A stretch of 64,000 nucleotides of DNA, taken from the NCBI GenBank assembly GCA_015143295.1, contig CM026565.1, positions 16,936,548 through 17,000,547 of the forward strand, read 5' to 3'. The notes beneath the pieces were generated by a model that searched no databases, had not been told where the DNA came from, and saw nothing but the letters and a program-made list of their open reading frames with translations. Each line of letters starts with the position of its first letter. The stretch's first letter is position 1. Shown here piece by piece: positions 2,430 through 50,136 of the stretch. This stretch comes from Tetracentron sinense (lineage: Eukaryota > Streptophyta > Magnoliopsida > Trochodendrales > Trochodendraceae). A program made the position numbers and the translations under genes.

Positions 2430-2843
2430 TGTCACGCCCCAAAATACCCCCTAACAGTTAAGGGATACTTTAGTCGTGACTGTACTTAACCTACCAAACC
2501 ATCCTGAAATGAACAAGGTAATAATTTAGAAATAGAATATGATACGGAGTGCGGAAACTTAAATACAATGTGGAAGCGTGAACTAAAATTTTCTTTTCTA
2601 TACAAAGTATGTATTCTAAGTTCAAATAAAAAAAACATATCAAATTAAAAGTGGACATGCCCACCTATCAAAATACAAAAAAGGTAAAATCTCACAGACT
2701 CTCTCTACTAACAGTAGTCTAGATACGGCCACACATCTAAATCTTTATCCGCCTGCGTCTGCATCAGAATAGGTGGCTCTCTCTCCTCAACATACTCTTC
2801 CTCAACCCAAGGCTTAGGGTCGAGGACATCCACAGTACCAACC
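2430..2843 (-). mobile_element. Solo LTR G, piece 1 (unit 1 copy); duplicate at 4950-5363
   Basis: Starts TGTCACGCCCCAAAATACCCC, the reverse complement of a Tekay-type LTR 3' end. It is preceded by TCTTT (2425-2429), repeated exactly after the far end of G at 32051-32055. The piece stops at 2843 where F is inserted. It carries, on the minus strand, codons 4 onward of the conserved LTR short ORF, with stop at 2708-2710. Confidence 0.88.
2708..2838 (-). pseudogene. LTR short ORF of G, body, split from its ATG by F
   Basis: On the minus strand this encodes the PWVEEEY core and the WPYLDYC end, then TAG. The first codons (ATG TCG GTA) lie at 22677-22685, on the other side of the F insertion. Removing F and one TSD copy gives a continuous 46-codon frame, the same length as in A and D. 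Codons differ from A mainly at third positions (GTT for V, TAT and TAC for Y, CCG for P, CTA for L). A second copy lies in the duplicated unit at about 5228-5358. Confidence 0.7.
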
Positions 2844-4803: not shown

Positions 4804-5850
4804 CTTCGATTGATTTGGCTAATGCCTTCATGTGATGCCATGACAATCAATCTGGCTAGCGCCTTCAGGGGATGCATTTCCAATTAGTTAGCTAGGGCCT
4901 CCAAGTGTCATCCATCCGGCTAGTGCCTCTGGGGACATGCCAAATCTTTTGTCACGCCCCAAAATACCCCCTAACAGTTAAGGGATACTTTAGTCGTGAC
5001 TGTACTTAACCTACCAAACCATCCTGAAATGAACAAGGTAATAATTTAGAAATAGAATATGATACGGAGTGCGGAAACTTAAATACAATGTGGAAGCGTG
5101 AACTAACATTTTCTTTTCTATACAAAGTATGTATTCTAAGTTCAAATAAAAAAAAAATATCAAATTAAAAGTGGACATGCCCACCTATCAAAATACAAAA
5201 AAGGTAAAATCTCACAGACTCTCTCTACTAACAGTAGTCTAGATACGGCCACACATCTAAATCTTTATCCGCCTGCGTCTGCATCAGAATAGGTGGCTCT
5301 CTCTCCTCAACATACTCTTCCTCAACCCAAGGCTTAGGGTCGAGGACATCCATAGTACCAACCTGTAGAGCCCTGGATTTTCTACAAGCACTGTTCATGT
5401 GCAAGCATTGTTCATGTGAGTGAATAGTGCCGAGGGCACTAGTATTGGAAGGGCCAAAGGCCTTTATTATAAGTTGGGTTTGGTTAATGAGAGTGAGGGT
5501 TCCTCATGGCCTGAGTGTGAGGTGAGTTTGGTGGATGAATCAAGGGATGAGAGATGTCTTTCAAAAAACAAGCAAAAAGTATAAGACATACCCTAAGTGT
5601 TAGAGTGTTAGGGCGGCCACATGAATCTGATGTTCATGTGTAGCACCTCGGACTTTTTCATCCTTAATGAATAGCACTTTCGTAGCTAATTGACCGTTTT
5701 TGTAGTCTAATTAATAAATAAGGGAGAAATCGGAAATTCCGAAACGTCAGAAATGTGCGTTTTCGAAAGACGAACCCAACGCAAGTTGAATCGTCGAAAT
5801 CCGACGAGCGAGTCAAAAGATATGGTCAAAACAGTCCAGACATACAGAGA

Positions 5851-6036
5851 ACCGATCGCTCGGTCCAGTCAGCGATCGATCGGTCCATAACCGATCGATC
5901 GGTAGCTATCGCACGGTCAGAAATTTTGTATGGGGAAATTTTCCAGAGAGTGAGTTTTTGACCGGTCGATCGGTCATAAACACCGATCGCTCGGTAGGCA
6001 ACCGATCGATCGGTCATAACCACCGATCGCTCGGTC
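5851..6036. promoter_or_regulatory. U3 palindrome cluster ACCGATCGATCGGT type
   Basis: Seven 14-bp near-palindromes (ACCGATCGCTCGGT, GCGATCGATCGGT, ACCGATCGATCGGT, ACCGGTCGATCGGT and so on) in 186 bp, ending about 60 bp before the TATA-like site. The same cluster lies in the other A LTR copies (13409-13594, 17182-17367) and, with variants, in B, C, D and E. Position suggests an upstream activating or protein-binding array. That is inference. Confidence 0.6.
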
Positions 6037-7028
6037 TTCGCGTTTTTGCAGAAATTTCAGTAAGGGCGTTTTCGTCTTTTGGGTGTTAAACCCTTACCCA
6101 TAAGGGTTTGCTCGACCCTTTGAGGCCTCACTTACAACATTTGAGGGATTTTGAGAGATAGAGAGAGAAGAGGAGAAAGCTCTAACCTAGGGTTTGGTTT
6201 TGAGAAGGAAATTCAAAGGGGGTTTAAGAACCATAGCTCACCCCAACTCGAGTTGCTTCAAAATCGAGGCTCAAGCTCGTGTGTGAACCATTCTCCAAGC
6301 TAGGGCAGCAACCCAAGCACGTTTTTGAAAGGGGTTTCTTCCCCAACTCAAGTCTCCTTCAAGCAAAGGTGTTCTTCTTTCGAGTTGGAGCTTCAATCAA
6401 GGTTTCTACCAAGGATCAAGCCTTGATTTAAGGTTAGTACACCCTACTAACTTACCCTAGCAATAAATCTAGGTTTTCCTTATGAAATATGATTCTTGTT
6501 AGTATGTTTTATTCTTTACAAAATGTGTTATCTATAATAAATATAAACAAGATAAAGAAAGGTGTGGATGTGTGGATGGAATGTTGGATACGGCGATTGG
6601 ATGCCGAATGTGTGATGTATGATGTGTGGGTTGTGGATTGGAAAATGGAGGATGGGCATTGTACAAATAACAAACTTACCCTTGTGTGATTGAATGGAAA
6701 ATATGCATTAAAAAGAATGAGATAAACTACTAAGGAATAACGTATGAAAGTGTTTGACAAAATGCCTAAACTATGAATAAATGATCTCAATGAAGGATAT
6801 AGAAATGGGTTTTATGCATGCGTTCTTATAAATGATCAATTGATCAAATGTTATGCAAACTACTTATGTTACTTATGTTCATATCATGAATTGAATTATA
6901 ATGTCATATTTGGTTATTTCCATTATCATGATTGTCACTATGGACACGTACACGAACACGCATGATAGCATGAATCGAGATTTCAAGAGCATGTGCATAT
7001 AATAAACAACAAGAAAATATTGCATGTC

Positions 7029-7352
7029 AAGGAGGTTGGTAGCCCAGGGAGGATTCGGGTACTAACCTCTGGCTCACAAGAAAACCCTGCATTGCATAAC
7101 AAGGAGGTTGGTAGCCCAGGGACATTCGGGTGCTAGCCTCTGGCTCACAAGTGCATTGCATAACAAGGAGGTTGGTAGCCCAGGGACATTCGGGTACTAA
7201 CCTCTGGCTCACAAGAAAACAAGTGCATTTCATAACAAGGAGGTTGGTAGCCCAGGGAGGATTCGGGTACTAACCTCTGGCTCACAAGTGCATTGCATAT
7301 CAAGGAGGTTGGCAGCCCAGGGAGATTCGGGTGCTAGCCTCTGGCTCACAAG
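7029..7352. repeat. Tandem hairpin repeats in A LTR
   Basis: Five units of about 55-72 bp, each with GAGGTTGGTAGCCC and, after a 10-11 nt loop, GGGTACTAACCTC or GGGTGCTAGCCTC. The arms pair over about 13 bp with one bulge and G-U pairs. Units are separated by CTGGCTCACAAG. Copies lie in each A LTR (4509-4803, 14586-14909, 18359-18682) and, reversed, with three units in each D LTR. Confidence 0.8.
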
Positions 7353-7615
7353 TTACAAGATGGAGGTTTACAAGATGATGATCATGCATTCATGCATGCA
7401 CGCATACATGATTTCTACGAGACATACCGGGACATGACAAGGGTTTTCAAGCATGAGTTTTATCGGCATTTTCGCATTCATGTACGCACGTCAGGATGCT
7501 TGTATTGTGTCATGCCCTATACTGTTTCCTTGTGATGTTTCTATTACTGCTTGTATGATGTTACTATTATGTGTTTTTTTTTATTGTTGTTATGGTCTGC
7601 TAGTAGCTTGTACTC

Positions 7616-7636
7616 GCTGAGTATTCCATGCTCAGC
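7616..7636. promoter_or_regulatory. Conserved LTR hairpin GCTGAGTAT-TCC-ATGCTCAGC
   Basis: Inverted repeat with a 3-nt loop and one mismatched pair, 9 nt before the short ORF ATG. It is kept in A, B, D and E; F and G have the perfectly paired ATACTCAGC arm; C has ACTGAGTAC-CTTT-GTACTCAGC, changed on both arms. Other A copies: 15171-15191 and 18946-18966. Confidence 0.7.
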
Positions 7637-7645
7637 CGTACTTTC

Positions 7646-7786
7646 ATGTCGGCAGGTACTGAGGGAGCCCTCGACCCGGAGCCTTGGGTCGAGGAAGAGT
7701 ATACAGAGGAGAGAGAGTCGGCTATCCCATTACAGTCTCAGGCGGACCGAGACCTCGATGCGTGGCCATACCTCGACTACTGTTGA
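7646..7786 (+). CDS. LTR-embedded short ORF, 46 aa, conserved between LTR families
   Basis: ATG TCG GCA GGT start, TGA stop. The product is an acidic peptide with PWVEEEY at residues 13-19, an EER segment and WPYLDYC at the C-terminus (40-46). No signal peptide or membrane segment. D and G LTRs encode equally long homologues, E and B shorter ones ending differently, C a variant without the ATG, and F a diverged one. Between A, D and G the shared residues are encoded by different synonymous codons (V as GTC/GTT, E as GAA/GAG, P as CCA/CCG, Y as TAC/TAT, L as CTC/CTA), which is what protein-level constraint looks like. An in-frame ATG also sits in the hairpin, 18 nt upstream. Function unknown; translation unproven. 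It matches no family I recognise. Confidence 0.6.
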   Translation: MSAGTEGALDPEPWVEEEYTEERESAIPLQSQADRDLDAWPYLDYC

Positions 7787-7837
7787 GGGGAGAGTATGAG
7801 AGGGTTTGGTGTATTTTGATATTTTGATATTTTGATA

Positions 7838-7853
7838 GGTGGGCCTGTCCACC
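7838..7853. promoter_or_regulatory. Second conserved LTR hairpin GGTGG-GCCTGT-CCACC
   Basis: Perfect 5-bp stem about 50 nt after the short ORF stop. D has GGTGG-GCATGT-CCACC. B and E have GCGG...CCGC, so a T-A pair is replaced by C-G on both arms. Could be a leader or R-region RNA structure. Confidence 0.5.
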
Positions 7854-8081
7854 TTAGGCTTAGACATGTCTTGTATTTATGTTAACTTGGAATACTATTT
7901 TGGATCATCAGAAGAAATGAAAATTTGTTTACGCTTCCGCATATATGATAGCTTCCGTGCTCTGATTATCGTTATGAGTACTGTATTTTATCTTGTGCAT
8001 TACAGGATGGTTTGATAGGTTCGCAGTGTGACACCTAAAATATCCCTAAACTCCTAGGGGGTATTTCGGGGCGTTACAGAG

Positions 8082-8093
8082 TGGTATCAGAGC
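8082..8093 (+). other. Element A primer binding site (initiator Met tRNA)
   Basis: TGGTATCAGAGC three bases after the 5' LTR end, the standard plant iMet-tRNA complement that primes minus-strand DNA synthesis. Confidence 0.95.
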
Positions 8094-8137
8094 TCTAGGC
8101 ATTAGAGTCCCTAGGGTCACTTAGATGATTGAACAAG

Positions 8138-8396: not shown

Positions 8397-8404
8397 GAGA
8401 AATC

Positions 8405-9657
8405 ATGAGACGCAATACCCGGGGTCGCGGGTACAACACGAGGGGTAATGGAGGTGATGCTCCATCGGGTGATGATCAACCCGACTTTGCCCGAGCATTC
8501 GCATCCATAGCCGAGACCTTGGCTATGTTGGCGGCAAGGCAACCGGCCACTCCGCCTAATGCGGCACTCATACCGGCTCCTCCTAACCGAGCCCAAGCCG
8601 GGATAGAAGCTTTTCGGAGGATGAGGCCTCCAACTTTTTGTGGAAGCATTGATCCACTTGTTGCCGAGGGTTGGATCCGGCAACTTGAGAAGATATTCTC
8701 GGTATTAGCACCTACTGAAGTGGAAAGGGTCACATGGGCCGCCTTTATGCTTGAAGGCGAGGCCGATCATTGGTGGAAGTCTGCACTTCGGACCCGAGAG
8801 TTGACCCGGCAAGGTCAAGATTGGACTTGGGAGGAATTCTTGGAGGTTTTCAACAAGAAGTATTTTCCGGTCGGGATGAAAGAAAAGATGGAAGTCGAAT
8901 TCATTACCTTGGAGCAAGGTAATATGTCCGTAGCGGCTTATGAAGCCAAATTTTCGGAGCTATCTCGATTTGCTCCACACATGATAGCGACCGAGGTTAT
9001 GAAGGCCCAGAAATTCGAGAGGGGGTTGAAGGCCTATCTCAAGGACCGAGTCTCGATGTTTAGACATGAGACATATTCTGAAGTTGTTGATAAAGCACTA
9101 TTGGCCGAGTCGAACTCCGAAGAGTTCTTCAAGAGGAGAGGAATGGAAAAAGGACAGTCGAGTAGTTCAGGGGAGAAAAGAGCAAGGACGAGCTTGTATC
9201 AGTCTGCAGGCCCGGCTCAGTCACAGAGGATGTATTCAGCACCACAGGCTCCCCGCTCTTTCGCTCCACCGGCTTTTCGCCCGGCTACCTCATATGCTCC
9301 TCGCCCCGCAGTTACTCAGGCTACGGGGTATGCTCCGTCCTCCTATTTGCATGATGTTTGCACTCTTTGTGGGAGGAGGCATCCAGCGGGAGAATGCCGG
9401 AGAGTTTCAGGAAGTTGCTTCCATTGTGGTGACCAAGGCCACATGGTCAGAGATTGTCCCCGGCGTCAATTGCCAACTCAGTCTTCAGGGAGCAGGCCCC
9501 CGGTTAGGCAGACATCTCAGCCCAGCTCTTCTCAGGCTTCGAGGGCCTCACAGTCTACCCGGCCTCCTCGCCCAGCCACACAGGGCCGAGTCTTTGCCTT
9601 ATCCGAGAGAGACGCACGTGCATCCGACGATGTCGTGCAAGGTACGCACGAATTCTA
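8405..9657 (+). CDS. gag: Gag polyprotein of element A (417 aa)
   Basis: Structural protein that packages element RNA into cytoplasmic particles. I start at MRRNTRG because an acceptor-like CAG lies nine bases upstream and D, C and B begin with the same MRR; the frame is open for seven more codons upstream. The Retrotrans_gag core lies at about residues 80-190 (motifs GEADHWW, FITLEQGNMSVAAYEAKF). Two cysteine-histidine clusters follow: a variant CTLCGRRHPAGEC at about 319 and a canonical CCHC knuckle CFHCGDQGHMVRDC at about 338-351. A Ser/Gln/Pro-rich tail ends in VVQG and stops just inside the spacer. Splicing of 9642-9773 would fuse it in frame to protease. Confidence 0.93.
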
Positions 9658-9773
9658 GAATTTAAATTGTGTAAAATTTCTATGGTTTGCTTTGTGAGTT
9701 TCTATACTAAGGGTTACCTATGTATGATGCTTGTTGTTTGAAATCTACTAATAGTAGTCACTTAATCGCACAG
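9642..9773 (+). other. Gag-protease intron-like spacer in A (132 nt)
   Basis: Begins CAAG|GTACG, ends ATCGCACAG|GCG, and has TACTAAT at 9746-9752, about 21 nt from the acceptor, matching the plant branch-point pattern. Without splicing the gag frame stops at 9655-9657. With exact removal the codon split G|GC joins ...VVQG to [11 protein letters not shown] and DTGSTHSF, the usual gag-protease continuity of Tekay elements. C and D have the same arrangement. Confidence 0.7.
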
Positions 9774-12700
9774 GCGCTTTGTTAGTGAACGAATGTCTTG
9801 CCCGAGTGTTGATCGACACAGGATCCACTCACTCCTTTGTGTCGCCTAGTTTCGCAAAGGGATTTTTGACTGAGGCTACTCCGTTAAAGCAGGAGTTGAC
9901 CATTGCAACTCCACTCGGCAAGTCAGTTGATACAGACAAGATATTCGGGGATAGTGTGGTTCAAGTGGGGGAGAATGAACTGTTAGCCGATCTCATCGTC
10001 CTAGATTTTCAAGACTTGGATTTTGATGTCATCTTAGGGATGGATTGGTTGTCAAACCATCACGGGCATGTTGCGTGTTTTGAGAAGATGGTGAATTTCA
10101 AGCCGGAAGGGGGTAAGCCTTTTCACTTCCGAGGATTAAGAGAGAGGGACATTGCTCGCCTCGCAGCCTTGAGTGTAACAAACCTAGAAGCACAAAACTC
10201 CTCGGCCATTCCGGTCGTGAGTGATTTCTTGGACGTGTTTCCGGAGGAACTTCCCGGGTTACCTCCGAATCGGGAGATTGAGTTCGCTATAGAGCTTACT
10301 CCGGGCACCGCTCCAATTTCAAGAGCCCCATATAGAATGGCCCCGATAGAGCTTGAAGAATTGAAGAAGCAAATTGAGGAGTTACAACAACTTGGTTTCA
10401 TCCAACCAAGTGTGTCACCGTGGGGAGCTCCGGTCCTTTTTGTAAAGAAGAAAGACGGGTCGATGAGAATGTGCATAGACTACCGTCAGTTGAACAAGGT
10501 AACTATCAAGAATCGTTATCCCTTGCCAAGGATCGATGACTTGTTCGACCAACTGAAGGGAGCGAGATTCTTCTCCAAAATTGATCTTAGGTCGGGGTAT
10601 CATCAATTAAGGATCAGGGCGGAAGATGTTCCGAAGACGGCCTTCAGGACTCGGTATGGGCATTACGAGTTCCTTGTCATGCCTTTTGGGCTGACGAATG
10701 CACCGGCGGCATTCATGGATTTGATGAATCGGGTGTTCCGATCTTACTTGGATCGATGCGTGATTGTATTCATTGATGACATTTTGGTGTATTCCCAGAC
10801 ACGGGAGGATCACGCGCGAGACCTCCGCCTTGCTCTGGAGATGTTGAGAGAGCATAGGCTATATGCCAAATTGAGTAAGTGCGAGTTCTGGTTAGAGAAG
10901 GTCGCATTTCTTGGACACGTGGTGTCGGCCGAGGGCATTTCTGTAGATCCAGCCAAGGTTGAGGCAGTCATGAGTTGGGAGAGGCCCAAGAGCGTCACGG
11001 AGATACGTAGTTTCCTCGGATTGGCAGGCTACTACCGGAGATTTGTGGAGGGATTCTCCAGTCTGGCTGCACCTCTCACCTACTTGACAAGGAAAAATGC
11101 AAAGTTCAGTTGGAGTGACCGATGTGAAGTAAGTTTCCAAGAGTTGAAGAAACGCCTCACCACAGCCCCTGTCCTTACTGTGCCATCTGGACCTTTTGGG
11201 TATGAGGTGTATAGTGATGCCTCGCACGTCGGACTCGGGTGTGTCCTAATGCAACACAAGAAAGTCATTGCCTATGCATCAAGGCAGTTGAAAGAGCATG
11301 AAAAGAACTATCCCACTCACGACTTGGAGCTTGCGGCGGTCGTGTTTGCACTTAAAATTTGGCGACATTATCTGTACGGGGTGGAGTTCTATGTGTACAC
11401 GGACCACAAGAGCCTCAAGTATCTCTTTTCCCAAAAAGAGTTAAACTTACGACAACGGCGTTGGATTGAGTTCTTAAAGGACTACGAGTGCACTATCCAA
11501 TATCACCCGGGAAAAGCAAATGTGGTGGCAGACGCTTTGAGTAGGAAACCATCGGGGTTGTTGGCTCACATGTTGGTGCGGGAATGGAGACTGTTAGAAG
11601 ATTTGGCAAATCTAGACATCAGTGTGAACGATTCTGTCCGCAGTCCGGTTTTGGCAAATGTTACAGTTCGGCCGTACCTTATAGACTTGATCCAGGAGTA
11701 TCAAGCCACAGACACTGACTTGTTGGCTTTCCGGGATAAGGAAGTGGCCAAGGGTAGTACGGACTTCTCTCTCACTAGCCGAGGTGCTATTACATTCAAG
11801 GGAAGACTTTGTGTCCCAGCCAATGTAGACCTTCGGAGAGAGATTATGGACGAGGCTCACCGGTCTAAGTATACAGTGCATCCCGGAGGGACAAAGATGT
11901 ATCGGAACCTCAAGAGTCACTTTTGGTGGCGAAACATGAAGAGGGAGGTTGCGGAGTATGTGGCACGGTGTTTGGTGTGCCAACAGGTGAAAGCGGAGCA
12001 TTTGAGACCGGCGGGTCTTTTGCAGTCTCTCCCTATTCCCGAGTGGAAATGGGAACATATCTCTATGGACTTCATCGTGGGATTGCCAAAGACGGTCAAG
12101 AAGACCGATGCTATATGGGTAGTTATTGATAGACTCACGAAGTCCGCTCATTTCTTACCATACCGGACTACATTCAACTCCAACCAGTTAGCGGAGCTAT
12201 ACATCAAGAAATAGTCCGATTGCATGGGGTGCCAGTGAGTATTGTGTCGGATAGAGACCCAAGATTCACATCCAGGTTTTGGAAAAGTTTTCAAGGTGCA
12301 ATGGGCTCCCGGTTAGACTTTAGCACAGCTTTCCACCCACAGACCGACGGGCAAACCGAGAGGGTGAATCAGGTTATTGAAGATATGCTCCGAGCATGTA
12401 TGCTAGACTTCAAGGGAAGTTGGGAAGATCACCTACCTTTGGTGGAATTCGCTTACAACAATAGTTATCAAGAAAGCATACAAATGGCGCCTTTCGAGGC
12501 TTTGTACGGAAGGAGTTGTAGATCCCCGTTGTATTGGGATGAAGTGGGAGAAAGAAAGATTTTGGGCCCCGAGTTAATTGAACAAACCGCGGATAAGGTC
12601 AAGCTTATCCGGGAGAGGTTAAAGACCGCACAAGATAGACAGAAAAGCTATGCCGACAACCGAAGGAGGGATCTTGAATTCCGAGTCGGTGATTTTGTGT

Positions 12701-13104
12701 TTGTAAGGATTTCACCGACCAAAGGTGTTATGCGATTCGGGAAGAGAGGCAAGCTTAGCCCGAGATATGTGGGTCCGTTCGAGATCATTACTCGAGTTGG
12801 CGAGGTGGCTTACCGTGTTGCTTTGCCCGCTCACATGGCGGCGGTCCATAATGTATTCCATGTCTCTATGCTCCGGAAGTACATCTCGGATCCTTCTCAT
12901 GTCATCGAGCTTGATCCGATAGAGATCCGAGAGGACCTCACTTTAGTTGAGAAGCCGGTTCATATTTTGGATAGGAGAGATCAAGTGCTTCGCAACAAGA
13001 CTATTCCGCTAGTCCTCGTGCAATGGCAACATCATGCACGAGAAGAAGCCACGTGGGAGCGTGAAGCCGAAGTCAAAGCAAAGTATCCCGAGTTGTTTGA
13101 ATAG
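9774..13104 (+). pseudogene. pol: Element A pol: protease, RT, RNase H, integrase (one frameshift)
   Basis: Domains in order: aspartic protease DTGSTHSF (about 9818), reverse transcriptase with [12 protein letters not shown] and catalytic FIDDI (about 10770), RNase H with YSDAS and TDHKSL and ending at VADALSR (about 11545), integrase zinc-binding HHCC (HPGG, CLVC; 11880-11980), catalytic D in SMDFIVGLP, second D in VSDRDPRF, E in DGQTERVNQ, then [14 protein letters not shown] and a chromodomain-like [16 protein letters not shown]. One base is missing near 12205-12211 (ATCAAGAAATAG where C and D read ATCAAGGAAATA), which stops the frame at 12212-12214 inside the integrase core; the rest is open from 12220 to 13104. 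No ATG is needed at the start if the upstream spacer is spliced. Otherwise intact. Confidence 0.95.
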
Positions 13105-13183
13105 ACTTGTGCATATGGCTTGTAATTTTGTTTTGATTTTGTGCATGTATGTATCGTCCAAATTTCGGGGACGAAATTTTTGT

Positions 13184-13196: not shown

Positions 13197-15633
13197 TGTA
13201 GCACCTCGGACTTTTTCATCCTTAATGAATAGCACTTTCGTAGCTAATTGACCGTTTTTGTAGTCTAATTAATAAATAAGGGAGAAATCGGAAATTCCGA
13301 AACGTCAGAAATGTGCGTTTTCGAAAGACGAACCCAACGCAAGTTGAATCGTCGAAATCCGACGAACGAGTCAAAAGATATGGTCAAAACAGTCCAGACA
13401 TACAGAGAACCGATCGCTCGGTCCAGTCAGCGATCGATCGGTCCATAACCGATCGATCGGTAGCTATCGCACGGTCAGAAATTTTGTATGGGGAAATTTT
13501 CCAGAGAGTGAGTTTTTGACCGGTCGATCGGTCATAAACACCGATCGCTCGGTAGGCAACCGATCGATCGGTCATAACCACCGATCGCTCGGTCTTCGCG
13601 TTTTTGCAGAAATTTCAGTAAGGGCGTTTTCGTCTTTTGGGTGTTAAACCCTTACCCATAAGGGTTTGCTCGACCCTTTGAGGCCTCACTTACAACATTT
13701 GAGGGATTTTGAGAGATAGAGAGAGAAGAGGAGAAAGCTCTAACCTAGGGTTTGGTTTTGAGAAGGAAATCAAAGGGGGTTTAAGAACCATAGCTCACCC
13801 CAACTCGAGTTGCTTCAAAATCGAGGCTCAAGCTCGTGTGTGAACCATTCTCCAAGCTAGGGCAGCAACCCAAGCACGTTTTTGAAAGGGGTTTCTTCCC
13901 CAACTCAAGTCTCCTTCAAGCAAAGGTGTTCTTCTTTCGAGTTGGAGCTTCAATCAAGGTTTCTACCAAGGATCAAGCCTTGATTTAAGGTTAGTACACC
14001 CTACTAACTTACCCTAGCAATAAATCTAGGTTTTCCTTATGAAATATGATTCTTGTTAGTATGTTTTATTCTTTACAAAATGTGTTATCTATAATAAATA
14101 TAAACAAGATAAAGAAAGGTGTGGATGTGTGGATGGAATGTTGGATACGGCGATTGGATGCCGAATGTGTGATGTATGATGTGTGGGTTGTGGATTGGAA
14201 AATGGAGGATGGGCATTGTACAAATAACAAACTTACCCTTGTGTGATTGAATGGAAAATATGCATTAAAAAGAATGAGATAAACTACTAAGGAATAACGT
14301 ATGAAAGTGTTTGACAAAATGCCTAAACTATGAATAAATGATCTCAATGAAGGATATAGAAATGGGTTTTATGCATGCGTTCTTATAAATGATCAATTGA
14401 TCAAATGTTATGCAAACTACTTATGTTACTTATGTTCATATCATGAATTGAATTATAATGTCATATTTGGTTATTTCCATTATCATGATTGTCACTATGG
14501 ACACGTACACGAACACGCATGATAGCATGAATCGCGATTTCAAGAGCATGTGCATATAATAAACAACAAGAAAATATTGCATGTCAAGGAGGTTGGTAGC
14601 CCAGGGAGGATTCGGGTACTAACCTCTGGCTCACAAGAAAACCCTGCATTGCATAACAAGGAGGTTGGTAGCCCAGGGACATTCGGGTGCTAGCCTCTGG
14701 CTCACAAGTGCATTGCATAACAAGGAGGTTGGTAGCCCAGGGACATTCGGGTACTAACCTCTGGCTCACAAGAAAACAAGTGCATTTCATAACAAGGAGG
14801 TTGGTAGCCCAGGGAGGATTCGGGTACTAACCTCTGGCTCACAAGTGCATTGCATATCAAGGAGGTTGGCAGCCCAGGGAGATTCGGGTGCTAGCCTCTG
14901 GCTCACAAGTTACAAGATGGAGGTTTACAAGATGATGATCATGCATTCATGCATGCACGCATACATGATTTCTACGAGACATACCGGGACATGACAAGGG
15001 TTTTCAAGCATGAGTTTTATCGGCATTTTCGCATTCATGTACGCACGTCAGGATGCTTGTATTGTGTCATGCCCTATACTGTTTCCTTGTGATGTTTCTA
15101 TTATTGCTTGTATGATGTTACTATTATGTGTTTTTTTATTGTTGTTATGGTCTGCTAGTAGCTTGTACTCGCTGAGTATTCCATGCTCAGCCGTACTTTC
15201 ATGTCGGCAGGTACTGAGGGAGCCCTCGACCCGGAGCCTTGGGTCGAGGAAGAGTATACAGAGGAGAGAGAGTCGGCTATCCCATTACAGTCTCAGGCGG
15301 ACCGAGACCTCGATGCGTGGCCATACCTCGACTACTGTTGAGGGGAGAGTATGAGAGGGTTTGGTGTATTTTGATATTTTGATATTTTGATAGGTGGGCC
15401 TGTCCACCTTAGGCTTAGACATGTCTTGTATTTATGTTAACTTGGAATACTATTTTGGATCATCAGAAGAAATAAAAATTTGTTTACGCTTCCGCATATA
15501 TGATAGCTTCCGTGCTCTGATTACCGTTATGAGTACTGTATTTTATCTTGTGCATTACAGGATGGTTTGATAGGTTCGCAGTGTGACACCTAAAATATCC
15601 CTAAACTCCTAGGGGGTATTTCGGGGCGTTACA
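13197..15633 (+). repeat. Element A 3' LTR (2,437 bp)
   Basis: Nearly identical to 5639-8078; differences are a few substitutions and a shorter T run near 15130. Followed by the TSD TCATG. Confidence 0.96.
15201..15341 (+). CDS. LTR short ORF, A 3' LTR copy
   Basis: Same 46 codons as the copy at 7646 with no difference that I can see. The copy in the duplicated LTR is 18976-19116. Confidence 0.55.
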   Translation: MSAGTEGALDPEPWVEEEYTEERESAIPLQSQADRDLDAWPYLDYC

Positions 15634-16877: not shown

Positions 16878-16969
16878 ACTTGTGCATATGGCTTGTAATT
16901 TTGTTTTGATTTTGTGCATGTATGTATCGTCCAAATTTCGGGGACGAAATTTTTGTAAGAGGGGGAGAA

Positions 16970-19408
16970 TGTAGCACCTCGGACTTTTTCATCCTTAATG
17001 AATAGCACTTTCGTAGCTAATTGACCGTTTTTGTAGTCTAATTAATGAATAAGGGAGAAATCGGAAATTCCGAAACGTCAGAAATGTGCGTTTTCGAAAG
17101 ACAAACCCAACGCAAGTTGAATCGTCGAAATCCGACGAGCGAGTCAAAAGATATGGTCAAAACAGTCCAGACATACAGAGAACCGATCGCTCGGTCCAGT
17201 CAGCGATCGATCGGTCCATAACCGATCGATCGGTAGCTATCGCACGGTCAGAAATTTTGTATGGGGAAATTTTCCAGAGAGTGAGTTTTTGACCGGTCGA
17301 TCGGTCATAAACACCGATCGCTCGGTAGGCAACCGATCGATCGGTCATAACCACCGATCGCTCGGTCTTCGCGTTTTTGCAGAAATTTCAGTAAGGGCGT
17401 TTTCGTCTTTTGGGTGTTAAACCCTTACCCATAAGGGTTTGCTCGACCCTTTGAGGCCTCACTTACAACATTTGAGGGATTTTGAGAGATAGAGAGAGAA
17501 GAGGAGAAAGCTCTAACCTAGGGTTTGGTTTTGAGAAGGAAATTAAAGGGGGTTTAAGAACCATAGCTCACCCCAACTCGAGTTGCTTCAAAATCGAGGC
17601 TCAAGCTCGTGTGTGAACCATTCTCCAAGCTAGGGCAGCAACCCAAGCACGTTTTTGAAAGGGGTTTCTTCCCCAACTCAAGTCTCCTTCAAGCAAAGGT
17701 GTTCTTCTTTCGAGTTGGAGCTTCAATCAAGGTTTCTACCAAGGATCAAGCCTTGATTTAAGGTTAGTACACCCTACTAACTTACCCTAGCAATAAATCT
17801 AGGTTTTCCTTATGAAATATGATTCTTGTTAGTATGTTTTATTCTTTACAAAATGTGTTATCTATAATAAATATAAACAAGATAAAGAAAGGTGTGGATG
17901 TGTGGATGGAATGTTGGATACGGCGATTGGATGCCGAATGTGTGATGTATGATGTGTGGGTTGTGGATTGGAAAATGGAGGATGGGCATTGTACAAATAA
18001 CAAACTTACCCTTGTGTGATTGAATGGAAAATATGCATTAAAAAGAATGAGATAAACTACTAAGGAATAACGTATGAAAGTGTTTGACAAAATGCCTAAA
18101 CTATGAATAAATGATCTCAATGAAGGATATAGAAATGGGTTTTATGCATGCGTTCTTATAAATGATCAATTGATCAAATGTTATGCAAACTACTTATGTT
18201 ACTTATGTTCATATCATGAATTGAATTATAATGTCATATTTGGTTATTTCCATTATCATGATTGTCACTATGGACACGTACACGAACACGCATGATAGCA
18301 TGAATCGCGATTTCAAGAGCATGTGCATATAATAAACAACAAGAAAATATTGCATGTCAAGGAGGTTGGTAGCCCAGGGAGGATTCGGGTACTAACCTCT
18401 GGCTCACAAGAAAACCCTGCATTGCATAACAAGGAGGTTGGTAGCCCAGGGACATTCGGGTGCTAGCCTCTGGCTCACAAGTGCATTGCATAACAAGGAG
18501 GTTGGTAGCCCAGGGACATTCGGGTACTAACCTCTGGCTCACAAGAAAACAAGTGCATTTCATAACAAGGAGGTTGGTAGCCCAGGGAGGATTCGGGTAC
18601 TAACCTCTGGCTCACAAGTGCATTGCATATCAAGGAGGTTGGCAGCCCAGGGAGATTCGGGTGCTAGCCTCTGGCTCACAAGTTACAAGATGGAGGTTTA
18701 CAAGATGATGATCATGCATTCATGCATGCACGCATACATGATTTCTACGAGACATACCGGGACATGACAAGGGTTTTCAAGCATGAGTTTTATCGGCATT
18801 TTCGCATTCATGTACGCACGTCAGGATGCTTGTATTGTGTCATGCCCTATACTGTTTCCTTGTGATGTTTCTATTACTGCTTGTATGATGTTACTATTAT
18901 GTGTTTTTTTTTATTGTTGTTATGGTCTGCTAGTAGCTTGTACTCGCTGAGTATTCCATGCTCAGCCGTACTTTCATGTCGGCAGGTACTGAGGGAGCCC
19001 TCGACCCGGAGCCTTGGGTCGAGGAAGAGTATACAGAGGAGAGAGAGTCGGCTATCCCATTACAGTCTCAGGCGGACCGAGACCTCGATGCGTGGCCATA
19101 CCTCGACTACTGTTGAGGGGAGAGTATGAGAGGGTTTGGTGTATTTTGATATTTTGATATTTTGATAGGTGGGCCTGTCCACCTTAGGCTTAGACATGTC
19201 TTGTATTTATGTTAACTTGGAATACTATTTTGGATCATCAGAAGAAATGAAAATTTGTTTACGCTTCCGCATATATGATAGCTTCTGTGCTCTGATTATC
19301 GTTATGAGTACTGTATTTTATCTTGTGCATTACAGGATGGTTTGATAGGTTCGCAGTGTGACACCTAAAATATCCCTAAACTCCTAGGGGGTATTTCGGG
19401 GCGTTACA
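16970..19408 (+). repeat. Element A LTR, duplicated copy
   Basis: Full-length LTR made by the 3.77-kb tandem duplication, followed again by TCATG and F sequence. Contains the short ORF at 18976-19116. Confidence 0.95.
18976..19116 (+). CDS. LTR short ORF, duplicated A LTR copy
   Basis: 46 codons, same start and stop context as 7646. Its presence adds no independent evidence of constraint because the LTR is a recent copy. Confidence 0.5.
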   Translation: MSAGTEGALDPEPWVEEEYTEERESAIPLQSQADRDLDAWPYLDYC

Positions 19409-23911: not shown

Positions 23912-26229
23912 TGTAACGCCCCAAAACCCACCCTAGGAGTTAGAGTGAACTTTGGATGACTAATCATGACATACATGACTTGCTTGACAAACCATCCTGC
24001 AAAAACCCACAGAGCATATACAAAAGAGGACATAAATAACTGAAACATACTCTAACATGGCACAGTGGAAGACTTAACCAAACCTCTATGTATATATATG
24101 TGATCCAAGTTTATACAAAAAGATACACAAGGAAAGTGCGGACAGGCCCGCCAAAATACATGAACATATATCTCTCAACTCACCCACAGTCACTCAGAGT
24201 CTACCACCTAGTAGTACTTGTCTACACGAGGCTCCTCCATAGGTTCTTTAATGTACTCCTCTTCTACCCAAGGGCCAGGGCACAGATGTCGAATGGAGCA
24301 GTAGCTCCCTCATTACCTGCCGACATAAACGTCCGGCTGAGCATGGAATACTCAGCGTGTACCAAATACTAACCAACAGTCATAGCAACATAGCAATATA
24401 GAATTGGAATAAAGTAGGAAGTAGTTCATATGGTCAACAGGGAAAAGAAATAGTTTATAGTTCATGCTTGAATCATATCGAAGTCAGAAAAACTCTTGAA
24501 ATCATCTTGTGCTGTACTTGGCTTGAAATAATCAGTCATGCGTGAAAACTCATCATGTCTATCTTGCTCGTCTGTTATGCTCGACTGGGTGTGCCTAGCT
24601 GCCGTTCATAGACCGTCGCAACTAGTATCCCCTACGCTGAACTGGGTATGCCTAGATGTCGTTCATAGACCGTAGCAACTAGTATCCCCTATGCTGGACT
24701 GGGTATGCCTAGATGCCGTTCATAGACCATCACAACTAGTATCCCCTATGCTGGACTTGTGATATTGGAGCAAAGCATATCTTAGGATATGCCCTACTCC
24801 TAAGCAAAATGTATCTTAAGATATGTCCTACCCCTAGTACTTGAAAAACCCGATAAACCATGTCATGCATGTCGTGCCTGTGAAATCGTGTACGCTTAAC
24901 TCATGAAAATTAAATGAAACATAATAGGCTCAAAATCCTTCAAGGCGTCATTGAATATCAAAGCAATTAAATCTACACGTATAAAATCCTAGAAAGCAAA
25001 TAAATTTACAATCATACAATTCTAGAAAGCGAATAACACACTATCATGAACCCTAAGAATTTCCATATGCTTCAAATCATGCTTTTCTTAAGTTATAATT
25101 CATTTTCTTCATATTGGCATTTCATCAAACATATGGTGTGTACATTATGGTTAATGCCTAAATCTTGCTTTTCTAGATGGGTTAAGCTCATAGCACACAT
25201 GTGTGTTTATTATTAATACAATGCCCTTCCCCTTTCGTTCATCGTAAAACATACACATGGCATCCATTCGCCCAAATCCCTCCTCACACAACCATTCCAT
25301 TCACATCCCACTAGGTTCATACTTTAGGAAAACAATAAAAGGAAGGAAAGAATGGGGGGTATGAACTAGGAGGGTAGTAAAAGGTACCGACCTTGACAAA
25401 TGAGGGAAGAAACCCCTTGCAAAAACGTGTGTGAGTCGCTGCCCTAGCTTGGGAAAAGTGCTCCTCACGAGCTTGAGTCGAGAACTTGAAGAAGAACAAG
25501 CTTGAGGATGATTGTGGGTCTTCAACCCTTTGATTCCTCCTCAAAAGAAAACCCTAGGTTTAGAAACCCCTTTCTCTTCACTCCTTATCTCTCAAATCTT
25601 CTAAGTGTTGAGAATGAGCCCTAAAGACTCGGGCGAGCCTTATATGTAAAGGGTATAACACCCAAATGCCGAAAAAGCCCTTAATGAAATTTTGCAAAAA
25701 CATGATAGACCGATCGATCGGTGGTTATGATCGAGCGATCGGTTGCATACCGAGTGACCGGTGAATTGACCGAGCTCTTGGTCAAAAACAAGCTCTCTAG
25801 AAAATTTCCCCATACAAAATTTTCAACCAGTTGATAGCCTCCGATCAATCAGTTGTGGACCGATCGATCGCTCAATGGACCGAGCGATCGGTGGTCTGCA
25901 GGTCCAAACTGTTTTGGCCCTATCTTTTGACTCGTTCATTGGATTTTAACGATTCAACTTGCGTTGTGTTCGTACTTCGAAAAGGAACATTTTTGATGTG
26001 TCAGAATTTTTTATTTTCTCCCTTATTCATTGACCAAATTACCCCTAAAGTTAACTGATCCATAAATAGAGTTCAGTAAACCGGATTTTTAACATATCCG
26101 ACTTAGGAATCCCTCTTCCCAACACTTAACATTCTTTAAAATTTCTCCTTCCATAGGAATGGAAGATTACAAAGACCTAAAGCCTTGGCACGGACTCCAA
26201 TACATGGGCAAAAGTTTCGGGTTTCTACA
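23912..26229 (-). repeat. Element B 3' LTR (2,318 bp)
   Basis: Reads TGTAGAAACCC...GGGGCGTTACA on the minus strand. Contains U3 palindromes (about 25708-25895), TATA-like TACATATAAGG (about 25650), donor-like CAAG|GTCGGTAC, three repeats of about 57 bp (24590-24760), the conserved hairpin and a damaged short ORF. Confidence 0.92.
24208..24326 (-). pseudogene. Frameshifted LTR short ORF in B
   Basis: Starts ATG TCG GCA GGT at 24326 like A. It closely resembles the E version (TAPFDICAL versus AAPFDICAL), but one base is missing before CCTTGGGTA, so the frame stops at 24264. The other frame continues PWVEEEYIKEP and ends TAG at 24208. In the B 5' LTR a deletion of about 280 bp removed the start and hairpin. 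Confidence 0.6.
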
Positions 26230-29027: not shown

Positions 29028-31081
29028 TGTAACGCCCCAAAACCCACCCTAGGAGTTAGAGTGAACTTGGGATGACTAATCATGACTTACATGACTTGCT
29101 TGACAAACCATCCTGCCAAAACCCACAGAGCATATACAAAGGAAGACATAAATAGCGGAAACATACTCTAACATGGCACAGCGGAAGACTTAACCAAACC
29201 ACTATGTATATATATGTGATCCAAGTTTATACAAAAAGATACACAAGGAAAGTGCGGACAGGCCCACCAAAATACATGAACATATATCTCTCAACTCACC
29301 CACAGTCACTCAGAGTCTACCACCTAGTAGTACTTGTCTACACGAGGCTCCTCCGTAGGTTCTTCAATGTACTCCTCTTCTACCCAAGGGCCAGGGCACA
29401 ATGTACTCCTCTTCTATCTTGCTCGTCTGTTATGCTCAACTGGGTGTGCCTAGCTGCCGTTCATAGGCCGTCGCAACTAGTATCCCCTATGTTGGACTGG
29501 GTATGCCAGGATGCCGTTCACCGTCACAGCTAGTATCCCCTATGCTGGACTGGGTATGCCTAGATGTCGTTCATAGACCATCACAACTAGTATCCCCTAT
29601 GTTAGACTTGTGATACCGGAGCAAAGCATATCTTTGGATATGCCCTACTCCTAAGCAAAACGTATCTTAGGATATGTCCTACCCCTATTACTTGAAAAAC
29701 CCGATAAACCATGTCATGCATACCGTGCCCCTGAAATCGTGTACGCTTAACTCATGAAAATTAAATGAAACATAATAGGCTCAAAATCCTTCAAAGCATC
29801 ATTGAATATCAAAGCAATTAAATCTACACGTATAAAATCCTAGAAAGCGAATAAATTTACAATCATACAATTCTAGAAAGCGAATAACACACTATCATGA
29901 ACCCTAAGAATTTCCATATGCTTCAAATCATGCTTTTCTTAAGTTATAATTCATTTTCTTCATATTGGCATTTCATCAAACATATGGTGTGTACATTATG
30001 GTTAATGCCTAAATCTTGCTTTTCTAGATGGGTTAAGCTCATAGCACACATGTGTGTTTATTATTAATACAATGCCCTTCCCCTTTCGTTCATCGCAAAA
30101 CATACACATGGCATCCATTCGCCCAAATCCCTCCTCACACAACCATTCCATTCACATCCCACTAGGTTCATACTTTGGGAAAACAATAAAAGGAAGGAAA
30201 GAATGGGGGGTATGAACTAGGAGGGTAGTAAAAGGTACCGACCTTGACAAATGAGGGTAGAAACCCCTTGCAAAAACGTGTGTGAGTCGCTGCCCTAGCT
30301 TGGGAAAAGTGCTCCTCACGAGCTTGAGTCGAGAACTTGAAGAAGAACAAGCTTGAGGATGATTGTGGGTCTTCAACCCTTTGATTCCTCCTCAAAAGAA
30401 AACCCTAGGTTTAGAAACCCCTTTCTCTTCACTCCTTATCTCTCAAATCTTCTAAGGTGTTGAGAATGAGCCCTAAAGACTCGGGCGAGCCTTATATGTA
30501 AAGGGTATAACACCCAAATGCCGAAAAAGCCCTTAATGAAATTTTGCAAAAACATGATAGATCGATCGATCGGTGGTTATGACCGAGCGATCGGTTGCCT
30601 ACCGAGCGACCGGTGAATTGACCGAGCTCTCAGTCAAAAACAAGCTCTCTGGAAAATTTTCCCATACAAAAATTTCAACCAGTCGATAGCCTCCAATCGA
30701 TCCGTTGTGGACCGATCGATCGCTCAATGGACCGAGCGATCGGTGGTCTGCAGGTCCAAACTGTTTTGGCCATATCTTTTGACTCGTTCATTGGATTTTG
30801 ACGATTCAACTTGCATTGGGTTCGTACTTGGAAAAGGAACATTTCTGATGTGTTAGAATTTTTTATTTTCTCCCTTATTCATTGACCAAATTACCCCTAA
30901 AGTTAACTGATCCGTAAATGGAATTCAGTAAACCGGATTTTTAACATATCCGACTTAGGAATCCCTCTTCCCAACACTTAACATGCTTTAAAATTTCTCA
31001 TTCCATAGGAATGGAAGATTAAAAAGGCCTAAAGCCTTGGCACGGACTCCAATACATGGGTAAAAGTTTCGGGTTTCTACA
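29028..31081 (-). repeat. Element B 5' LTR (2,054 bp)
   Basis: Same as the 3' LTR except for a deletion of about 280 bp near 29400, where the motif GTACTCCTCTTCTA occurs on both sides of the break. The deletion removes the conserved hairpin and the start of the short ORF. Confidence 0.9.
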
Positions 31082-36252: not shown

Positions 36253-38482
36253 TGTCGCGCCCCAAAATACCCCCTAGGAGTTAAGGGATACTTTAGAGGT
36301 GACTACGTGTACCTGTCAAACCATCCTGTAATGCAAGAGGCTAAACATAATATAATACAATGATAATCAGAGCGCGGAAACTAAACATAAGTGCGGAAGC
36401 ATAAGCCAACTTTTTCTTTTCGTCTATAACTCCAAATAGTATTCCAAGTTAACATATACCAAATACAATCAAAGTTTTGGTGGACATGCCCACCTATCAA
36501 AATACAAAAGGAACTCTCTAACCCTCTCCTCTCAACAGTGGTCGAGGTATGGCCACACCTCCAAGTCCCCATCCTCCAGAGAATGCCATGGGATAGGTGG
36601 CTCCCTCTCCTCTACATACTCCTCCTCGACTTAAGGCTCGGAGTCGAGGACATCCACAGTACCTGCCGACATAAAAGTACGGCTGAGCATGGAATACTCA
36701 GCGAGTACAAACTACTAGCTAACCATAACAATAGCGAAAGCATAACCACAGTGAGCAATACAAGATATTAATTTAAAGCAATAGTGAAAGCATAAGATAC
36801 ATAGCCATATCTTGACATGCATGTATGAATGCAAAAACCTCGGTAAAACTCATGTCTCGGAAACCTTTTTCGTGTCTCGGTCAAATCATGTATGTGTGTC
36901 GTGTCTTGTCTTGTATTTCATGTCTTGATTTGTTCTTGACTTGTATACTTGTGAGCCAGAGGCTAGCACCCTTCCTTAGGCTACCAACCTCCTTGTCATG
37001 TTCTTGTTCCATTTCTCTTGTGAGCCAGAGGCTAGCACCCTTCCTTGGGCTACCAACCTCCTTGTCATGTTCTTGTTCCATTTCTCTTGTGAGCCAGAGG
37101 CTAGCACCCTTCCTTGGGCTACCAACCTCCTTGTCATGTTCTTGTTCCATTTCTTGATTCAACATGTATAATACAATCTTGAAAAACCCGGTTTCATGCA
37201 TGCATGTGTGCTCGTGGGCGTGCCAATAGTGACAATCATGGGGACACGTGTAACAAGAGGGATATCGCATCATATTTCAATTCATAGTATAACATGTAAG
37301 CATTTAGGTGATCAACATGGCATTTGATCAAGTCATCATTTACAAGAATAATTACATAAAGCTTACATCCATTTCCTTTATCAATTTCATTTATTCTTGG
37401 TTTAGGCATATTATCAAACATCCGGTGTGCAACATTTTAGTAGTTTTATTTCCCCTTTTTAGCGCATAAATTTCCAACACAACATCCAAGTAGGTTCATT
37501 ATTCATAGAGTGCCCTTCCACCATTTTCCATACCCACATTTCACCACGTCTAACGGCATCCAATCGCCTCTACATCCACCATTCATACATACAACCCCAC
37601 ATTCACATTTATCTTGTTTAAGTTTAGGAAGTATAGCACATTTCAAGTAAGGGAAGATACAAGACCAACATCATAATGTCAAAGGGGAAAAACTAGATTA
37701 TTGCTAAAGAAAGTTAGTAGAGTGTACTAACCTTAGATCAAGGCTTGATCCTTGGTAAAAACCTTGATTGAAGCTCCAACTTGAAAGAAGAACACCTTTG
37801 CTTGAAGGAGATTCGAGTTAGGGAAGAAACCCCTTTCAAAAACGTGCTTGGGTTGCTGCCCTGGCTTGGAGAATGGTTCACACACGAGCTTGAGCCTCGA
37901 TTTTTGAAGCAACTCGAGTTGGGGTGAGCTATGGTTCTTAAACCCCTTTGATTCCTTCTCCAATGGAAAACCCTAGTTGCAAATCCCCTTCTCCTTTCTC
38001 TCTATCTCTCAAAATCCCTTAATGTTGTAAGTGAGGCCTCAAAGGGTCGAGCAAACCCTTATGGGTAAGGGTTTAACACCCAAAAGACGAAAACGCCCTT
38101 ACTGAATTTCTGTAAAAACGCGAAGACCGAGCGATCGGTGGTTATGACCGATCGATCGGTTGCCTACCGATCGATCGGTGTTATTGACCGATCGACCGGT
38201 GAAAAACTCACTCTCTGGAAAATTTCCCCATACAAAATTTCTGACCGTACGATAGCTACCGAGCGATCGGTGTTCTGCTGGTCCCGACTGTTTTGCCATA
38301 TCTTTTGACTCGCTCGTCGGATTTCGACGATTCAACTTGCGTTGGATCCGTCTTTCGAAAACGAACATTTATGATGTTTCGGAATTTCCGATTTCTCCCT
38401 TATTTATTAATTAGACTACGAAAACGGCCAATTAGCTACGAAAGTGTCATTCATTAAAGATGAAAAAGTCTGGGGTGCTACA
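36253..38482 (-). repeat. Element D 3' LTR (2,230 bp)
   Basis: On the minus strand TGTAGCACCCC...GGGGCGCGACA. Three hairpin repeats (36950-37155), U3 palindromes (38125-38275), short ORF 36532-36672. Confidence 0.95.
36532..36672 (-). pseudogene. LTR short ORF of D 3' LTR, one nonsense codon
   Basis: Same 46-codon frame as 43881-44021, but the TGG of PWVEEEY is TAA. Start ATG TCG GCA GGT and the WPYLDHC end are kept. Confidence 0.6.
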
Positions 38483-49435: not shown

Positions 49436-50136
49436 AGAACGGCATGTCACATCATTGTATGATCTGAATAAGTGCATAAGCATAAACATCTCACAAGCAC
49501 GTGGTCTCATAAGCATAAGCAACTCATAAGTGTATTGTCTTCCAAGTCAAAGATTCTCACAAGTACACGAGTCAAGGTGATGATATGATGTATATGCGCA
49601 CACGTTCTTCCACACTCTGATTATGTTATTATGTTATTGGATATGTTTCTAACTAAGTGCAGGCATATTATTATTGTTGGTTGGATTTTATATACACTGA
49701 GTACCTTTGTACTTAGCCGGACTTTGTCTTGGCAGGTTTAGAGCAGGAGTACACGGCGGAGCCGTGGGTTGAGGAAACATACTCCGAGGAAGGAGGTGAA
49801 GGTGAGCCTTCTGAGGAGGGAGCCAGAGACTTGGGTGGCTACACCTCTTAGTTTTTATTTCATTTGATTGAGAGAGTTGTATTAGACTTGAGTAGATGTT
49901 GCTTAGTAGAATTTTTTTTAGTTGTGTATCATACTCTTTGGTTTTAGTGGGTTGTATTTGTTGACTATAGACTCGTGCTATTTAGTGGGTTACAGTTGAT
50001 ATATCGGAAATTTTATTATCCTCATTTTTGGAGACTCGAGTTAGTGTGCCTTGCATGTCATGGATTTTAAGCAGGTTAAGTAATGTGGCGATCCTAAAGT
50101 CCTATTTTAGCCTTGTAGGATTTTGGGGTCGTTACA
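49436..50136 (+). repeat. Element C 5' LTR, piece 3
   Basis: Ends GGGGTCGTTACA at 50136. Contains the C form of the hairpin (ACTGAGTACCTTTGTACTTAGC) and the C short ORF. Confidence 0.92.
49717..49851 (+). CDS. C-type LTR short ORF, 5' LTR copy (no ATG)
   Basis: Open from just after a TAG in the hairpin arm (49714) to TAG at 49849. Encodes LAGLEQEYTAEPWVEE followed by an acidic Glu/Gly-rich tail. At the place of ATG TCG GCA it has GTC TTG GCA, so it needs another start or a spliced upstream exon. Confidence 0.4.
   Translation, partial: PDFVLAGLEQEYTAEPWVEETYSEEGGEGEPSEEGARDLGGYTS

What the first reader, a model, noticed from the sequence alone, without database searches (positions are those of the whole stretch)
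7646..7786. Conserved microprotein ORF hidden in the LTRs of several retrotransposon families
Seen: after a conserved hairpin, the A, B, C, D, E and G LTRs encode a short acidic peptide with core PWVEEEY (A, D, E, G) or close forms (B, C). A, D and G also share length (46 codons), start (MSAG; G MSVG) and end WPYLDYC or WPYLDHC. The core V codon is GTC in A, GTC in D, GTT in G, GTG in E, GTA in B and GTT in C; Y is TAT or TAC; P is CCT or CCG; E is GAG or GAA; in the tail CCA/CCG, TAC/TAT and CTC/CTA alternate. Changes concentrated at third positions while the flanking LTR diverges indicate selection on the protein. LTRs are normally described as non-coding. I know of no such protein in Tekay elements. 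It lies in the RNA leader before gag, so it may be a leader peptide regulating gag or an accessory factor.
Basis: partly seen in the sequence, partly recalled or inferred. Interest (0 to 1): 0.9.

Follow-up and report, generated by a model that had tools for sequence, protein, structure and literature searches.

The report
Protein-coding exon hidden in retrotransposon ends
The repeat ends of a large group of plant jumping genes carry a short protein-coding piece that evolution has kept readable, probably as the spliced-on tail of another protein of the element rather than as a free leader peptide.

Summary
The observation mostly holds. A 46-codon ORF lies at 7646-7786 in the 2.44-kb LTR of a Tekay/Del-like element; homologues sit in the other LTR families of the window. 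Its core WVEExYxEE, with synonymous positions free, occurs 20,049 times in this 1.16-Gb plant genome (reversed control: 1). In 20 independent pairs of LTR copies, exon differences outside the selected core fall 85/98/153 on codon positions 1/2/3, against 516/494/487 in flanks (p 9e-6); gaps in the exon are multiples of three in 18 of 28 cases against 61 of 312 (p 1e-6). It is coding.

The interpretation needs changing. ATG lies near the boundary in 28 of 57 copies; 22 of 57 have no in-frame ATG, yet families without it are constrained too. What most share (52 of 57) is a splice-acceptor-like [C/T]A[G/A]|GT where the frame begins, in phase 1. I read it as a 3'-terminal coding exon in the LTR. 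Its likeliest partner is gag, whose phase-1 donor (9641|9642) already serves a gag-pol intron; 62 intron-less copies of that junction exist. No RNA evidence was available, and no processed copy with the LTR exon was found.

The parts
7656..7786 (+). LTR coding exon, family A 5' LTR copy: begins at AG|GT (phase 1), ends with TGA
   Evidence: Third-position excess and triplet gaps in 20 independent pairs; coordinates
7646..7648 (+).
7642..7655 (+). Putative 3' splice site TTTCATGTCGGCAG, next base 7656
   Evidence: Column counts over 44 copies; in-phase YAG|GT in 48 of 57, YAA|GT in 4
7616..7636 (+). Conserved hairpin GCTGAGTAT-TCC-ATGCTCAGC just before the acceptor
   Evidence: Fold z -2.3; 34-43 of 44 copies paired per base pair, one pair T-A in 32 and C-G in 7
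7838..7853 (+). Second short hairpin after the stop (GGTGGGCCTGTCCACC), similar in D, G, B, C, E; fold not better than shuffles
   Evidence: (z -0.67)
5639..8078 (+). Family A 5' LTR
6120..6432 (+). Inferred 5' leader exon (start approximate), no ATG; donor GATTTAAG|GTTAGTAC at 6432|6433
   Evidence: start inferred from a TATAAATA box in the F LTR only; no RNA data
8082..8093 (+). Primer binding site TGGTATCAGAGC
8397..9641 (+). Gag exon; acceptor TTCTCAG|GAGAAATCATG, ATG 8405, donor GTGCAAG|GTACGC in phase 1
   Evidence: Pfam Retrotrans_gag and zf-CCHC
9642..9773 (+). gag-pol intron; removal joins SDDVVQ-G to the protease
   Evidence: Same layout in D, F and L113-L117; 62 intron-less junctions genome-wide
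9774..13104 (+). pol (protease, RT, RNase H, integrase parts, SH3, weak chromo hit); frame changes at 12133-12214 in this copy
15211..15341 (+). LTR coding exon, family A second LTR (13197-15633)
   Evidence: offset 7555
18986..19116 (+). LTR coding exon, family A third LTR (16970-19408)
   Evidence: offset 11330
43881..44011 (-). LTR coding exon, family D 5' LTR
36532..36662 (-). LTR coding exon, family D other LTR; stop in core (approximate ends)
2708..2838 (-). Family G exon, interrupted at its 5' end by another repeat
5228..5358 (-). Family G exon, duplicate
49036..49145 (+). Family E exon (LTR 47087-49430)
49736..49851 (+). Family F exon (PWVEETY, no ATG), 5' LTR end
57208..57323 (+). Family F exon, 3' LTR
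29324..29389 (-). Family B exon, core to stop; 5' part rearranged
24208..24316 (-). Family C exon; ATG and core in different frames (start approximate)

Best explanation
The LTRs of this plant's Tekay/Del-like elements carry a short coding exon: 3' splice site, about 36-48 codons of acidic protein in intact copies, stop, then the presumed poly(A) region. In the 3' LTR it acts as the last coding exon of a spliced transcript. Its start codon comes from an upstream exon that ends in phase 1, most likely gag, whose phase-1 donor at 9641|9642 already serves the gag-pol intron. One donor would then choose between the pol acceptor (Gag-Pol) and the LTR acceptor (Gag with a conserved acidic C-terminal tail and its own stop), which would set the Gag to Gag-Pol ratio. 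SHOWN: constrained coding frame, near-constant phase, lack of a conserved ATG, recurring gag donor, intron-less gag-pol copies. INFERRED: use of the LTR acceptor, the joining to gag, the place of the poly(A) site, the function of the tail.
For: Constraint outside the selected core: 85/98/153 vs 516/494/487 (Fisher p 8.8e-6); gaps x3 in the whole exon 18 of 28 vs 61 of 312 in flanks (p 1.3e-6). Families without the ATG alone: 36/38/61 vs 243/223/210 (p 0.0019), gaps 9 of 12 vs 27 of 137 (p 1.5e-4). dN/dS 0.22 over the exon, 0.33 outside the core, 16 independent pairs from 32 exons open for at least 17 codons. In-phase YAG|GT in 48 of 57 copies and YAA|GT in 4; ATG within 7 codons in 28 of 57. 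T-rich stretch before the site, C or T at -3 in 44 of 44. gag donor in phase 1 with SDDVVQ-G (SDDVVRG in L117) in A, D, F and L113-L117, intron sequence largely unrelated between family types. 62 intron-less gag|pol junctions, control 0. In silico, gag exon plus LTR exon stays open to the LTR stop. The Gag end obtained when the gag-pol intron is retained is not conserved (GTHEF in A, GTR in L114, GMSNCVFS in F; open through the intron in L115). Precedents: Cer1 CERV, EVADE short GAG, CRM polyprotein into the 3' LTR.
Against: No RNA data. Processed copies with the LTR exon were not found: joined to the A/D leader donor (0), to the gag-end donor (0, exact matches only), or to any AAG end not preceded by G in A/D/E-type exons (5 hits against 4 in the control; four read, all unspliced; the fifth not read). 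A gag-LTR product would lack the polypurine tract, so its absence is expected, but the missing leader-LTR form suggests the acceptor is rarely used in the 5' LTR. Agreement of phase with gag has a 1 in 3 chance by luck. The ATG is kept within one large subclade, so use as a start there is not excluded; in that subclade the gap test alone is not significant (6 of 15 vs 31 of 155, p 0.098). Exon identity is no higher than flank identity. My donor scores use a recalled plant matrix; E and B LTRs have no donor above its threshold and F has a different one.
Confidence: 0.62

Rival explanations
1. A free microprotein or leader peptide is translated from the LTR ATG.
For: In 28 of 57 copies ATG lies within 7 codons of the boundary, mostly as ATGTCGGCAG; ATG-subclade exons are constrained (44/50/82 vs 247/238/243, p 0.0012).
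Against: 22 of 57 copies have no in-frame ATG, and families without it are constrained. 56 ATGs precede it in the unspliced A leader. The ATG coincides with the putative intron end.
Confidence: 0.15
2. The segment is an RNA signal (purine-rich splicing enhancer or structure), and the apparent frame is incidental.
For: GAGGAAGAG-like purine runs follow an acceptor-like site and a conserved hairpin.
Against: Third-position excess and triplet gaps also in the C-terminal part outside the core (50/62/95, gaps 9 of 11); 40 of 46 copies are open for 11 codons after the core in frame 0 against 28 and 21 in the other frames.
Confidence: 0.06
3. The exon is joined to the LTR's own 5' leader exon (6432|6433), giving a mini-gene made entirely in the LTR, also from solo LTRs.
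For: The only donor above threshold in the A and D LTRs is the leader one; promoter, acceptor, ORF and presumed poly(A) region would all lie in the LTR.
Against: The leader exon has no ATG in A, and the in-phase join meets a stop (TAA|G) at once; no spliced A/D LTR copy.
Confidence: 0.08
4. A captured host-gene exon carried passively, kept by recent common ancestry of the LTR families.
For: No Pfam relative and no convincing PDB relative; origin unknown. The host genome was not searched for a non-LTR relative.
Against: Passive carriage predicts flat codon positions and gaps; flanks of equal age are flat, the exon is not.
Confidence: 0.05

Closest known systems
Cer1 CERV of C. elegans (Ty3/gypsy)
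   Same: Protein made from a spliced element mRNA; [quoted passage not shown]
   Different: CERV is 517 residues; here a few dozen codons within the LTR, splicing not shown
CRM group A chromoviruses
   Same: Coding sequence of the element lies in the 3' LTR (PMC3059260, passages)
   Different: There the polyprotein extends into the LTR and encodes the CR motif; here pol ends before the LTR and the exon is about 2 kb inside, behind a splice-site-like AG
EVADE/Copia short GAG and BARE1
   Same: Alternative splicing yields a Gag-only mRNA (review PMC12786077, passages)
   Different: Ty1/copia; the EVADE Gag end is a premature stop after the junction, not a conserved exon in the LTR
Ogre intron between gag-protease and RT regions
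   Same: Partly spliced intron between coding regions of a plant Ty3/gypsy element (PMC6317226, passages)
   Different: Non-chromovirus; intron lies elsewhere; no LTR exon in the passages seen
MMTV sag and lentiviral nef (recalled, no call; a search for MMTV wording found nothing)
   Same: Protein coded in an LTR
   Different: Retroviral, unrelated proteins

Membership tests
Ty3/gypsy element | gag, then protease-RT-RNase H-integrase | tested here: met
   Pfam hits in that order, read from three pieces of the A copy
Tekay/Del chromovirus | Chromodomain after integrase; place in the Tekay clade | tested here: inconclusive
Conserved protein-coding sequence | Substitution and gap pattern of coding sequence against flanks | tested here: met
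AUG-started leader microprotein | Conserved start codon | tested here: not met
   28 of 57 near the boundary; 22 of 57 none in frame
Spliced 3'-terminal exon | Conserved 3' splice site with constant phase | tested here: met
   52 of 57 in phase (48 YAG|GT, 4 YAA|GT, the latter not a splice site as written); boundaries of L047 and L071 doubtful
Spliced 3'-terminal exon | Spliced transcript or processed copy | tested here: inconclusive
   RNA not available; processed copies 0; four of five one search hits read, all unspliced
Cer1-CERV-like spliced gag fusion | gag donor compatible in phase and frame | tested here: met
Cer1-CERV-like spliced gag fusion | Actual joining in RNA; role in RNA export | not testable with these tools
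   No RNA data
CRM-type polyprotein extension into LTR | pol ORF continuous into 3' LTR | tested here: not met
   A pol stops at 13104 before the LTR at 13197; D and F also stop before their LTRs

The most novel reading that the evidence does not exclude
A large chromovirus lineage keeps its Gag C-terminus and stop codon in the LTR. One gag donor chooses between a near pol acceptor and a far acceptor in the 3' LTR, so alternative splicing, not frameshifting, sets Gag to Gag-Pol, and the LTR is a protein-coding exon present some twenty thousand times in the genome.
Probability: 0.38. Interest if true: 0.88.

Novelty: new variant of a known kind. Interest (0 to 1): 0.74.

Why it matters
Plant LTR elements are said generally to lack introns apart from a few exceptions (review passages), and how many Ty3-type plant elements balance Gag and Gag-Pol is unclear to me. 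A conserved coding exon in the LTR would change how LTRs are annotated and masked, would mean that solo LTRs may carry splice acceptors with coding exons that can tag host transcripts, and gives a clear, testable gene model (leader intron, gag-pol intron, LTR exon) for a very abundant lineage.

Tried and rejected
G copies as processed (spliced) copies: rejected. Their upstream part is another repeat family whose boundary falls next to the exon. Exon as a tail of pol: disfavoured; no AG|GT in phase near the pol end of A or D, and F has AAG|GTACGT only after the stop. Processed LTR copies: none found. Relatives in the protein collection (8 candidates, none at E <= 1), in viral contigs (3 pattern matches, none confirmed; hairpin pattern 0) and in prokaryote genomes (6 pattern matches, none confirmed): none, as expected for a plant element. 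Rfam on 5600-9000: none. Pfam: none (the ORF entry was off by one base and does not count). PDB: one hit at E 1.4, taken as chance. Within-family check: 20 young A copies chosen by flank, 4 synonymous and 7 other distinct changes in the ORF, too few for a test (and notebook entry 6 were off by one base and are replaced by it). V second-position changes: 1,692 against 20,049, but many of the listed strings look like unrelated WEEEEY repeats, so I do not lean on it. An earlier count gave splice coordinates 9648/9649/9771 and 6431; the right ones are 9641|9642, 9773|9774 and 6432|6433.

Full report
WHAT IS THERE. The ORF at 7646-7786 is real. [quoted passage not shown] that it fits initiator tRNA-Met is recalled). 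In the seven copies measured the core lies 348-394 nt before the LTR end. Of 13 LTR ends aligned, 12 of them chosen by core hits, one carries only a degenerate remnant.

GENOME. The window lies in a 1.16-Gb assembly of what must be a plant, judged by its elements. The pattern TGGGTNGARGARNNNTAYNNNGARGA, which fixes the amino acids WVEExYxEE and leaves synonymous positions open, has 10,046 forward and 10,003 reverse matches; read backwards it has 1. 100 places were listed, all on contig C1. I took 50 of them: the 30 that the tool cut out and 20 that I picked for different core sequences. With 7 copies from the window this makes 57.

CODING TEST. 57 copies were reduced to 46 that are at most 93% identical; 41 of these have a recognisable exon boundary (dropped: L061, L077, B, C, G). 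Nearest-neighbour independent pairs (20) were aligned as DNA, with no codon model, and differences were counted by codon position. Exon outside the selected core: 85/98/153. Flanks in the same register: 516/494/487. Fisher p 8.8e-6. Gaps of length 3n: 18 of 28 in the exon (core included), 61 of 312 in the flanks, p 1.3e-6. A first version with all 46 copies (22 pairs) gave the same picture for the C part (58/71/105, p 5e-4; 3' flank 324/310/324) but not significantly for the N part (59/59/78, p 0.16), which there included some intron end. The no-ATG families alone give p 0.0019 and, for gaps, p 1.5e-4; the ATG subclade gives p 0.0012 but gaps only p 0.098. Codon-aligned dN/dS is 0.22, or 0.33 outside the core, for 16 pairs from 32 exons open for at least 17 codons (choosing open exons favours this result). 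In the window, dN/dS (NG86, codon 5 on) is 0.46, 0.17 and 0.13 for A-D, A-G and D-G; YN00 worked only for D-G and gave 0.41. Overall identity of the exon is no higher than that of the flanks, so this is purifying selection on a fast protein, mixed with neutral decay after insertion.

THE START IS NOT THE ATG. Of 57 copies, 48 have an in-phase [C/T]AG|GT and 4 an in-phase [C/T]AA|GT. Of the other five, L061, L077 and C have frame slips, B is rearranged, G is interrupted. The boundaries of L047 and L071 are doubtful; for I moved them by hand. ATG lies within seven codons before the boundary in 28 of 57; 22 of 57 have no in-frame ATG. Positions -7, -9, -12 and -13 are mostly T and -3 is C or T in 44 of 44; the A(G/A)|GT itself was required by the search and is no evidence. 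A hairpin right before the site is kept, with one compensatory T-A to C-G change; its fold is better than most shuffles (z -2.3, 5 of 200 as good).

THE REST OF THE GENE MODEL. A leader exon without ATG (about 6120-6432) ends in GATTTAAG|GTTAGTAC, the only donor above my threshold in the A and D LTRs; E and B have none and F another. One of two D copies has an ATG in it. The start is inferred from a TATAAATA box in the F LTR; A has none. An acceptor TTCTCAG|GA lies just before the gag ATG in A, D, F and L118-L121. gag ends in SDDVV(Q/R) with a phase-1 donor, followed by an intron and the protease, in A, D, F and L113-L117; L117 is decayed at the acceptor. A pattern across the spliced gag|pol junction finds 62 places, control 0, of more than one family type. 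The simplest reading is that spliced RNA has been reverse-transcribed many times, so this intron is used; families that never had the intron are a lesser possibility. These 62 places were not read beyond the matched 32 bases.

WHICH EXON COMES BEFORE. The leader exon gives no start in A and meets a stop in phase. pol has no AG|GT donor at its end in A or D. The gag donor has the right phase and the joined frame is open to the LTR stop. Gag that ends by intron retention has no conserved end, and in one copy no stop (L115), whereas the LTR exon gives a conserved end. Hence my proposal: one donor, two acceptors. This is inference. Another phase-1 donor inside gag (8917|8918) is also possible. Searches for processed copies carrying the LTR exon found none.

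FUNCTION. The tail is acidic (12 D+E against 2 K+R in 41 residues of L048), with W and Y in the core kept by my choice of copies. It may balance the basic nucleocapsid part, steer Gag assembly, or mark a non-structural Gag as in Cer1, where CERV is needed for export of unspliced RNA (PMC10309623, abstract and passages). I cannot choose among these.

LITERATURE. Search listings: (the last two empty). Passages read: PMC10309623, PMC6317226, PMC7730604, PMC12786077, PMC3059260, PMC11963269. PMC7264820 was searched for 'within the LTR', 'in the LTR', 'Tekay', 'upstream of gag' and 'inside the LTR' with no occurrence; it was not read. In these searches I met no report of an LTR coding exon or a gag-pol intron in Tekay elements; most listed papers were seen only as listings, and subscription papers are not covered.

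Noticed in passing
window 9642-9773; genome-wide places: An intron between gag and protease in a chromovirus-like element, with 62 intron-less junctions in the genome.
   Followed up: partly
L115 1-601 (minus strand of the locus): In this copy the retained gag-pol intron is open and in frame from gag into protease.
   Followed up: no
window 5720-6030: U3 holds a strongly conserved block shared by the family copies aligned and repeated palindromes ACCGATCGATCGGT.
   Followed up: no
window 7020-7370: Tandem repeats (GGAGGTTGGTAGCCCAGGGA...) inside the LTR, in the stretch that would be intronic.
   Followed up: no
window 2283-7326 and 12644-20193: A 2.5-kb tandem duplication (99%) holding a G and an A LTR stretch, and a 3.8-kb tandem duplication that gives three A LTRs.
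   Followed up: no
window 35693-57608: Family F 5' LTR apparently split by a nested D element (36253-45813) and an E LTR (47087-49430).
   Followed up: partly
window 2840-3110: End of another repeat family next to the G exon; 46 matches listed from 846 candidates, 40 scored.
   Followed up: yes
exon boundaries of L045, L065, L067 and LTR ending 22675: Recurrent (C/T)AG|GT to (C/T)AA|GT changes at the acceptor, as expected from decay of methylated CHG sites (recalled rule).
   Followed up: no
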